Assembly (NCBI RefSeq): GCF_000221185.1
Contig: NC_015865.1
Span: 558,001 to 622,000, forward strand
Source of the DNA: Thermococcus sp. 4557
Lineage (GTDB): Archaea; Methanobacteriota_B; Thermococci; Thermococcales; Thermococcaceae
Direction of reading: 5' to 3'
Length of the DNA stretch: 64,000 bases
The notes beneath the pieces are model-generated. The model made no database searches, was not told the origin of the DNA, and was given only the letters and a program-made list of their open reading frames with translations. Shown here piece by piece: positions 23,725 to 26,000 of this stretch (the stretch's first letter is position 1; the number at the start of each line of letters is the position of its first letter). The translations under genes were made by a program, and so were the position numbers.

Positions 23725-23958
23725 GGGCAATCACCTCGAAAATAAATGTCTTCATAATCATTTAAAAGGTTTTCCACCCATGGCTATAAAAGTATGACAC
23801 ATCCATATTGGAAGTACTGCAAGAGGCAAGGAATACGGCGGCGTTCATTACGTTTGGAAAGCCATCGTGCATCGGTGCTCAAAAGATTTCAGTCATATCC
23901 CCCTTTCTCCGACGAAAGGGTTATTAAAACCGGGCCCCAGCTTTAGACGGTGATGCAC

Positions 23959-24906
23959 ATGGTGGTTAGCCTTGCCGGAAGGGATGTTCTCTGCCTTCAG
24001 GACTTTACGAGGGAGGAGATCGAGACTATTCTCAAGACGGCCGAGATGATGAAGATATGGAACAAAATAGGCAAGCCGCACCGCGTTCTCGAGGGTAAAA
24101 CCCTGGCCATGATTTTCCAGAAGCCCTCGACCAGAACGAGGATCTCCTTCGAGGTTGGAATCTATCAGCTCGGCGGCTACGGCCTCTACCTCAACGCCAA
24201 CGACCTCCAGCTCAGGCGCGGTGAGACAATAGCCGACACCGCCCGCGTTCTCAGCAGGTACGTGGACGGAATGATGGCGAGGGTTTACGCCCACAAGGAC
24301 GTCGAGGACCTCGCCAAGTACGCCAGCGTCCCGGTCATCAACGGTCTGAGCGACTTCTCCCACCCGTGCCAGGCTCTGGCCGACTACCAAACCATTCTCG
24401 AGAAGAAGGGCCGCATAGCCGGCCTCAAGATAGTCTACGTCGGTGACGGAAACAACGTCGCCCACTCCCTCATGATAGCCGGAACCAAGCTCGGAGCGAA
24501 CGTCGTCGTTGCAACCCCAGAAGGCTTCGAGCCTGACGAGAAGGTCATCAAGTGGGCGGAGCAGAACGCGGCCGAAAGCGGCGGCAGCTTCGAGCTCCTC
24601 CACGACCCAGTCAAGGCCGTCAAGGACGCCGACGTCATCTACACCGACGTCTGGGCGAGCATGGGTCAGGAGGCCGAGGCCGAGGAGAGGAGGAAGATAT
24701 TCCAGCCGTTCCAGGTCAACAGGGACCTCGTCAAGCACGCCAAGCCAGACTACATCTTCATGCACTGCCTCCCAGCCCACAGGGGAGAGGAGGTCACCGA
24801 CGACGTCGTTGACTCCCCGAACAGCGTCGTCTTCGACGAGGCCGAGAACAGGCTCCACGCCCAGAAGGCGGTTATGGCCCTCGTCATGGGCGGGATAAAG
24901 GTTTGA
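23959..24906 (+). CDS. argF: ornithine carbamoyltransferase
   Basis: OTCase joins carbamoyl phosphate and ornithine to citrulline. The 315-residue protein has the carbamoyl-phosphate loop STRTR at 57-61, the SHPCQALADYQTI segment, and the HCLP motif near 273 (MHCLPAHRGEEV). ATG 23959 gives MVVSLAGRDVLC, the usual Thermococcales start, with GGTGATG upstream; GTG 23950 lies within that site. TATA-like GTTATTAAAACC near 23921-23932. In Thermococcales the enzyme may serve arginine synthesis or citrulline use; no other arg genes are adjacent. Confidence 0.95.
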   Translation: MVVSLAGRDVLCLQDFTREEIETILKTAEMMKIWNKIGKPHRVLEGKTLAMIFQKPSTRTRISFEVGIYQLGGYGLYLNANDLQLRRGETIADTARVLSRYVDGMMARVYAHKDVEDLAKYASVPVINGLSDFSHPCQALADYQTILEKKGRIAGLKIVYVGDGNNVAHSLMIAGTKLGANVVVATPEGFEPDEKVIKWAEQNAAESGGSFELLHDPVKAVKDADVIYTDVWASMGQEAEAEERRKIFQPFQVNRDLVKHAKPDYIFMHCLPAHRGEEVTDDVVDSPNSVVFDEAENRLHAQKAVMALVMGGIKV

Positions 24907-24949
24907 GGCCCTTTCCCTCCTTTTTCTATCGAACGGTTTTTGCCCGTTG

Positions 24950-25029
24950 TGAAAGCGGGCTTTCATAAAATGTGCAATCTATGAAAGTGCACTTTCATAA
25001 AAGGTGCAGTTTGTGAAAGTCGGGTTTCA
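24950..25029. repeat. three 32-bp-spaced palindromes between argF and an RNA methyltransferase gene
   Basis: Three copies of a TGAAAG-N4-CTTTCA-like palindrome start at 24950, 24982 and 25014, exactly 32 bp apart (three helical turns). The middle one is a perfect 16-bp palindrome, TGAAAGTGCACTTTCA. The outer ones have spacers CGGG and TCGG; the last arm is GTTTCA. Each is followed by ATAAA, and the first two by AxGTGCAxT. They end about 13 bp before the TATA (CTTTTAAAC, 25042-25050) of the next gene, an activator-like position. Confidence 0.7.
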
Positions 25030-25070
25030 TAAACGAAGAACCTTTTAAACCCCTCTCTCTATCTCCCACC

Positions 25071-26000
25071 ATGCTCGAAAGGTTGTTTTCCCTCGGCTAC
25101 TCCAAGACCTTCGCGGAGCGCTATTACGAACTCTGGGGCGAGAGGGCATTGGCGATTGCCGAGGCTATGGAGAGGCCCCTGCCGAGGTGCTTCCGCGTAA
25201 ACACGCTCAGAATAGAGGTTCCCAAGCTCACCAAGCTCCTCAACAAGAAGGGCTTCCAGTTTAAACGAGTCCCCTGGGCGAGGGAGGGCTTCTGCCTGAC
25301 GAGGGAGCCATTCTCGATAACCTCCACGCCGGAATACCTGAGCGGTCTCCTCTACATCCAGGAGGCCAGTTCGATGTACCCGCCGGTGGCGCTCGAACCG
25401 AAGCCCGGCGAAACCGTTGCAGACATGGCGGCGGCACCGGGCGGAAAGACTAGCTACCTCGCCCAGCTGATGGAGAACGAGGGAATAATCTACGCCTTCG
25501 ACGTCGGGGAGGAGCGGCTGAAGGAAACTCGGCTCAACCTATCGCGCCTCGGGGTTACCAACACCGTCCTAATCCACAGCTCATCGCTCCACATCGAAGA
25601 ACTCGGAGTCGAGTTCGATAGAATCCTCCTCGACGCGCCGTGCACGGGCTCCGGAACGATACACAAGAACCCCGAGAGGAAGGCCAACCGCACGATGGAG
25701 GATGTAAAGTTCTGCCAGAACCTCCAGATGCAGCTCATCGAAAAGGCCCTCGAGGTTCTGAAGCCTGGAGGGGTTCTGGTTTACTCTACCTGCTCCCTCG
25801 AGCCGGAGGAGAACGAGTTCGTGGTTCAGTGGGTTCTTGAGAACTTCGACGTTGAACTGCTCCCGCTCCGCTACGGCGAGCCTGCTTTGACGAGCCCCTT
25901 CGGAATCGAGCTCAGCGAGGAGATAAGGAAGACAAGGCGCTTTTACCCCGACAGGCACGGGACGAGCGGCTTCTTCGTTGCGAAGATTAAGAAACTCTGA
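25071..26000 (+). CDS. RsmB/NOP2/Sun-family RNA m5C methyltransferase
   Basis: A 309-residue SAM-dependent RNA cytosine-5 methyltransferase. N-terminal RNA-binding part (PLPRCFRVNTLRI, LYIQEASSMYPPVAL), then the Rossmann domain with motif I VADMAAAPGGKTSYLAQL, motif IV DAPCTGSGTIHKNPE with the first catalytic Cys region and motif VI YSTCSLEPEENEFVV with the second. Size fits archaeal Trm4-like tRNA enzymes, but an rRNA substrate is possible. ATG 25071 is close to the expected transcript start from TATA at 25042-25050, so the mRNA is nearly leaderless. Confidence 0.9.
   Translation: MLERLFSLGYSKTFAERYYELWGERALAIAEAMERPLPRCFRVNTLRIEVPKLTKLLNKKGFQFKRVPWAREGFCLTREPFSITSTPEYLSGLLYIQEASSMYPPVALEPKPGETVADMAAAPGGKTSYLAQLMENEGIIYAFDVGEERLKETRLNLSRLGVTNTVLIHSSSLHIEELGVEFDRILLDAPCTGSGTIHKNPERKANRTMEDVKFCQNLQMQLIEKALEVLKPGGVLVYSTCSLEPEENEFVVQWVLENFDVELLPLRYGEPALTSPFGIELSEEIRKTRRFYPDRHGTSGFFVAKIKKL

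What the first reader, a model, noticed from the sequence alone, without database searches (positions are those of the whole stretch)
24950..25029. Three palindromes with exact 32-bp spacing before an RNA m5C methyltransferase gene
The repeats TGAAAG-N4-CTTTCA are on one helix face at three-turn spacing and lie just upstream of the TATA. This is the geometry of cooperative regulator binding, as for activator sites. No matching archaeal motif comes to mind. They also follow argF, so a terminator-like or dual role is possible.
Basis: seen in the sequence. Interest (0 to 1): 0.62.

Follow-up and report, generated by a model that had tools for sequence, protein, structure and literature searches.

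The report
Orphaned operator array of ATPase gene
The three evenly spaced palindromes are the control switch of a candidate virus-defence ATPase gene that this archaeon no longer has, and they led to what looks like a general rule: genes of this ATPase family, in archaea and some bacteria, carry their own pair of palindromes about three DNA turns apart at the promoter.

Summary
In detail: 16-bp palindromes start at 24950, 24982 and 25014, exactly 32 bp apart. The first two are perfect and the third has one mismatch. The 32-bp unit is itself repeated, and no other array exists in the 2.01-Mb genome.

The array does not belong primarily to argF or the m5C methyltransferase. In Thermococcaceae it travels with one AAA_14/DUF4143 ATPase family (best PADLOC match PDC-S01, a phage-defence candidate). 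All 14 close homologues with readable upstream DNA, including five at unlinked places in three other genera, carry the palindrome at start-relative -19, -51 and -83, and ten also at -115. They bracket the ATPase TATA box. The window's genome lacks this ATPase; a relative shows it as a pseudogene at this locus.

Seven other families of these ATPases show the same geometry with different palindromes. Of 117 genes, 67 pass a score that none of 585 shuffles reached, and every spacing is 32-35 bp although 20-50 was allowed. Relatives in other archaea and some bacteria show it too.

Best reading: each ATPase, through its winged-helix domain, represses its own gene by cooperative binding at a fixed three-turn spacing. 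The window holds an orphaned operator. Binding and repression are inferred, not shown.

The parts
24950..24965 (.). palindrome 1, TGAAAGCGGGCTTTCA (extended inverted repeat 24947-24968); equivalent to the -115 site of the ATPase operator
   Evidence: equivalence by alignment with L126-L139
24982..24997 (.). palindrome 2, TGAAAGTGCACTTTCA; equivalent to the -83 site
25014..25029 (.). palindrome 3, TGAAAGTCGGGTTTCA (one mismatch); equivalent to the -51 site, directly upstream of the promoter
24947..25033 (.). 32-bp tandem unit (about 2.7 copies): the whole orphan operator array
25042..25049 (+). TATA box (CTTTTAAA) of the methyltransferase promoter; ATPase-bearing genomes have the ATPase TATA, a fourth palindrome and the ATPase gene inserted between palindrome 3 and this element
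25071..26000 (+). NOL1/NOP2/sun-family RNA m5C methyltransferase gene (TIGR00446), probably leaderless
23950..24906 (+). argF, ornithine carbamoyltransferase, upstream neighbour
24907..24943 (+). T-rich tract after the argF stop codon, likely argF terminator
   Evidence: the same kind of tract follows argF in genomes without the array

Best explanation
The three palindromes are the upstream part of the operator array of a mobile AAA_14/DUF4143 ATPase gene (PDC-S01-like: P-loop ATPase, winged helix, PD-(D/E)XK-like domain). In genomes that keep the ATPase, the palindromes sit at -115, -83, -51 and -19 relative to its start, 32 bp apart, and bracket its TATA box. The ATPase most likely binds them as dimers through its winged helix, side by side on one DNA face, and represses its own promoter until a trigger (perhaps an invading element, via the ATPase state) releases it. 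In the window's genome the ATPase gene, its TATA box and the -19 site are gone, leaving an orphan operator in front of the methyltransferase promoter. Shown here: association, positions, spacing, absence of the ATPase, generality. Inferred: that the ATPase is the binder, repression, and the trigger.
For: (1) All 14 close homologues (74-100% identity, L126-L139) have sites at -19 (13 perfect, 1 with one mismatch), -51 and -83; ten also have -115. Five of these (G061, G068, G069, G082, G083) are at other places in three other genera, so the array follows the ATPase, not argF or the methyltransferase. (2) G000 has no such ATPase; G042 has it as a broken pseudogene at the argF-methyltransferase site. 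(3) Seven further ATPase families have the same arrangement with different palindromes: S>=23 in 67 of 117 genes, 0 of 585 shuffles, spacing always 32-35 although 20-50 was allowed; a TATA-like element lies between the sites in 45 and just downstream in 17; 0 of 300 control Thermococcus promoters reach S>=24. (4) Two other DUF4143 genes of the window's own genome show it by eye: TTGGTACGGTACAGCGTACCAA-TATA-TTGGTACAGTATATCGTACCA, 35 bp, and three TTTGCA-type palindromes 33-34 bp apart. (5) Outside the family: 15 of 47 relatives reach S>=24 against 4 of 123 control genes, 12 of the 15 at 32-34 bp. (6) The model has a winged helix at about 246-318, with Foldseek hits to MarR/SlyA/MepR repressors. 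The recognition-helix segment and the palindrome are constant within a family and differ between families.
Against: No binding or expression data. 50 of 117 Thermococcaceae ATPase genes fall below the score; mechanical start choice and operon-internal genes explain some, not necessarily all. A closely linked separate regulator is not formally excluded. Within the orphan clade G000/G032/G049 the arms did not change (0/36 columns, others 7/44, p=0.015), which hints that the orphan array is still under selection and may have a job without the ATPase.
Confidence: 0.76

Rival explanations
1. The array is a live control element of the m5C methyltransferase (and the ATPase was inserted behind it), bound by a regulator that is still in the genome.
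For: Palindrome arms are invariant among three orphan-array relatives while neighbouring positions vary; eight orphan arrays keep 32-bp register (4/36 arm against 29/44 other columns vary); the array abuts the methyltransferase promoter in all intact orphans; in most ATPase-bearing genomes at this site the methyltransferase follows the ATPase by 28 bp.
Against: The array occurs with the ATPase and without the methyltransferase in other genera; many genomes have the methyltransferase without array; there is no second copy in the genome for a core regulator; several orphans are decaying (G004, G015, G025, G047, G055, G057, G048).
Confidence: 0.12
2. The array is a recombination or attachment site that recruits variable cassettes (the locus is an insertion hot spot).
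For: The argF-methyltransferase gap is 60 bp to 7 kb with very different inserts; presence states are patchy on the tree, 18 changes.
Against: Inserts also occur at this spot in genomes without the array; site positions are fixed relative to the ATPase TATA and start, as for an operator; no recombinase gene or flanking target duplication was seen.
Confidence: 0.06
3. Intrinsic terminator or RNA hairpins after argF.
For: Each palindrome could form a hairpin in RNA.
Against: No Rfam match of note; argF has its own T-rich tract and the same ending without the array; the array is found away from argF.
Confidence: 0.02

Closest known systems
PDC-S01 (PADLOC phage-defence candidate; ATPase fused to PD-(D/E)XK; PMC12988326)
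   Same: The cognate ATPase of the array matches seven PDC-S01 models (best E 1e-35) and has the same domain order.
   Different: The paper text searched describes ATPase and nuclease-like parts and does not mention a winged helix; I found no description of operators. The window itself holds no such gene at this place.
STAND-type P-loop ATPases with winged helix (MNS-like archaeal ATPases, AAA_14 PF13173 + DUF4143 PF13635)
   Same: Pfam AAA_14 and DUF4143 hits; Foldseek resemblance to apoptosome, Cdc6 and NLR cores.
   Different: Clade placement recalled from memory, not tested here.
Archaeal autorepressors such as Lrp-type or TrmB-like regulators
   Same: Palindromic sites at or around TATA and start; repeated sites in helical phase (general knowledge, not tested here).
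   Different: Here the presumed binder is a 440-aa ATPase with a nuclease-like domain, the spacing is fixed at 32-35 bp, and the sequence is specific to each ATPase family.

Membership tests
Operator of the AAA_14/DUF4143 (PDC-S01-like) ATPase family | two or more similar palindromes 32-35 bp apart | tested here: met
Operator of the AAA_14/DUF4143 (PDC-S01-like) ATPase family | same palindrome sequence as in front of the cognate ATPase gene | tested here: met
Operator of the AAA_14/DUF4143 (PDC-S01-like) ATPase family | cognate ATPase gene directly downstream in this genome | tested here: not met
   G000 has no match at E<=1e-30; hence 'orphan'
Operator of the AAA_14/DUF4143 (PDC-S01-like) ATPase family | binding by the ATPase | not testable with these tools
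   needs DNA-binding assay
PDC-S01 | match of the cognate ATPase to PADLOC PDC-S01 models | tested here: met
   E 1.1e-35; this concerns the ATPase of relatives, not a gene in the window
PDC-S01 | anti-phage activity | not testable with these tools
Methyltransferase-specific operator | array present wherever the methyltransferase is, absent elsewhere | tested here: not met
Intrinsic terminator | needed after argF, found in relatives' argF ends | tested here: not met

The most novel reading that the evidence does not exclude
AAA_14/DUF4143 (PDC-S01-like) ATPases, among the commonest candidate defence genes of prokaryotes, are a class of ATPase-repressors that read family-specific palindromes set at a fixed three-turn (sometimes two-turn) spacing at their own promoters across archaea and bacteria. 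Their operators can outlive the gene as orphan arrays that still control neighbours or mark the strain for re-acquisition.
Probability: 0.5. Interest if true: 0.75.

Novelty: new variant of a known kind. Interest (0 to 1): 0.6.

Why it matters
PDC-S01 is reported as the fourth most common defence gene in prokaryotes, and I found no account of how it is switched on. Palindromes with family-specific sequence and one conserved spacing give a direct handle: each ATPase predicts its own operator, so binding, self-repression and induction by infection can be tested in genetically tractable Thermococcus. The window shows that such operators can survive the loss of the gene, a caution when reading regulatory motifs from sequence alone.

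Tried and rejected
Genome-wide regulon: no other arrays in G000; one-mismatch hits are intragenic. Rfam: only chance hits. First score with too narrow start windows undercounted operators, so it was widened. A phylum search of PF13635 mostly repeated the family. The array pair was not found in viral contigs, and plasmids held only distant ATPase relatives. PHROGs gave nothing for the variable upstream genes. Solved-structure sequence search gave no relative. Literature: only one paper in the held library contains 'DUF4143' and none described such operators; subscription journals are not covered. Single perfect palindromes elsewhere in the genus were mostly intragenic or chance.

Full report
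Observation. The window carries three palindromes at 24950, 24982 and 25014, exactly 32 bp apart; the third has one mismatch. Their flanks repeat too, so the unit is a 32-bp tandem repeat, the highest-scoring one in the window. Exact copies of TGAAAGN4CTTTCA occur nowhere else in the 2.01-Mb genome. The neighbours are argF and a NOL1/NOP2/sun RNA m5C methyltransferase. The methyltransferase TATA box lies at 25042-25049, about 21 bp before its ATG.

Conservation. In 61 genomes of the genus the exact motif is found in 35, frequently in arrays with 32- or 64-bp spacing. About 18 kb around the methyltransferase from 60 Thermococcaceae genomes showed that the array, where it is near the methyltransferase, lies between argF and that gene, but often with up to 7 kb of other genes on either side. 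In nine genomes (eight at this site, and G061 about 9 kb away) the gene starting directly at the array's end is of one kind: a 439-aa AAA_14/DUF4143 ATPase (Pfam; PADLOC PDC-S01).

The array belongs to the ATPase. A search of 94 Thermococcaceae genomes found close relatives (74-100%) in 15; G000 has none. Fourteen have readable upstream DNA. All carry the palindrome at start-relative -19, -51 and -83, and ten also at -115. The -19 site is perfect in 13 of 14 and follows a CTTATAAG-type TATA box. In G061, G068, G069, G082 and G083, from three other genera, the ATPase and array stand at other genome places without the methyltransferase. G042 holds the ATPase as a fragmented pseudogene at the argF-methyltransferase site, with its array almost gone. 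On a tree of methyltransferase plus a neighbour gene, ATPase-bearing, solo-array and empty states are intermixed (18 changes); the window's nearest relatives G032 and G004 are also solo. This is the turnover expected of a gained and lost defence-like gene.

The general rule. Paralogous ATPase families have other palindromes in the same geometry. I scored the region around the start of 117 DUF4143 genes (8 families at 45% identity) for any pair of similar palindromes at any spacing from 20 to 50 bp. 67 reach S>=23, none of 585 dinucleotide shuffles does, and all 67 spacings are 32, 33, 34 or 35. In 45 a TATA-like element lies between the two sites and in 17 just downstream. Control promoters of 300 other Thermococcus genes: none at S>=24. 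Examples: TTGGTAATN3ATTACCAA (34), TTGATAN6TATCAA (34), TTACCAGYATRRTGGTAA (34), TGTATTAGTAATACA (34), TGGTACGGTATAGTGTACCA (35), TGAAAGN4CTTTCA (32). Two of the four DUF4143 genes of the window's own genome show it clearly. Genes within a family are not independent samples, but eight families agree.

Beyond Thermococcaceae. Of 47 relatives, nearly all from other archaea and bacteria (one is Thermococcaceae), 15 reach S>=24, against 4 of 123 control genes in the same loci. Twelve of the 15 are spaced 32-34 bp and three 22-23 bp, two turns. Cases include Bathyarchaeota L247 (32), Nitrososphaerales L248 (34), Methanococcoides L249 (34), Pacearchaeota L266 (33), Paludibacteraceae L272 (33) and Bacteroidales L322 (32). 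AT-rich sequence raises the chance level here (shuffles 0.9% at S>=24), so single cases need checking.

Mechanism. The AlphaFold model (pLDDT 79) shows a P-loop ATPase, a winged helix at about 246-318 that resembles MarR, SlyA and MepR repressors, and a C-terminal part with weak hits to Can2/Cdn1-type nucleases (the E-values are modest). Recognition-helix segment and palindrome are constant within a family and differ between families. The simplest account is autorepression by dimers on adjacent sites three turns apart, covering TATA and start. ATPase state or ligand binding would relieve it. Binding, repression and trigger are inferred.

Is the orphan alive? Among G000, G032 and G049, none with the ATPase, arms show 0/36 variable columns and other positions 7/44 (p=0.015); over eight orphan arrays 4/36 against 29/44 (p=8e-7). 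The second figure partly reflects selection before the loss. The first is weak evidence for selection after it. Other orphans are decaying. A present role on the methyltransferase promoter is possible but secondary.

Literature. PMC12988326 calls PDC-S01 the fourth most common defence system across prokaryotes and describes it as ATPase fused to PD-(D/E)XK, with validation pending for most such candidates. No paper in the held library described such operators; subscription papers are not covered, so novelty is provisional.

Noticed in passing
L102, L088, L106, L085, L101 (between argF and array): Genes directly upstream of the array share a roughly 70-aa C-terminal domain (LEVLSILQALEFADYS...LLKLGLYAYALELV...) fused to unrelated N-terminal parts, sometimes in tandem; no Pfam, PADLOC or PHROGs match of note. 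They look like a swappable partner of the ATPase.
   Followed up: partly
L021 about 1501-1545 (G029): A single perfect palindrome TATGAAAGTCTACTTTCATA sits between TATA and ATG of a small HTH regulator gene (MGAKEDVYKKLEGILRVMGLKKGELKIYRLL), in a genome without the argF array.
   Followed up: partly
argF-methyltransferase gap in Thermococcus genomes (L066-L106): Insertion hot spot: gap from 60 bp to 7 kb holding several ATPase families, a PH-like protein gene, lipoprotein-like genes and others.
   Followed up: partly
G000:296317 (L330): DUF4143 ATPase gene with three TTTGCA-type palindromes 33-34 bp apart interleaved with two TATA-like elements, suggesting two alternative promoters under one operator.
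   Followed up: no
L290, L306, L311: Bacterial DUF4143 genes with palindrome pairs 22-23 bp apart (two turns) instead of 32-35.
   Followed up: no
L156-L159, L166-L172, L178: Several members of a DUF4143 subfamily (MSREETIAQ...) in this range have 33-bp direct repeats upstream (GTTAAGT..GGAGGGAAA) that are not palindromic.
   Followed up: no
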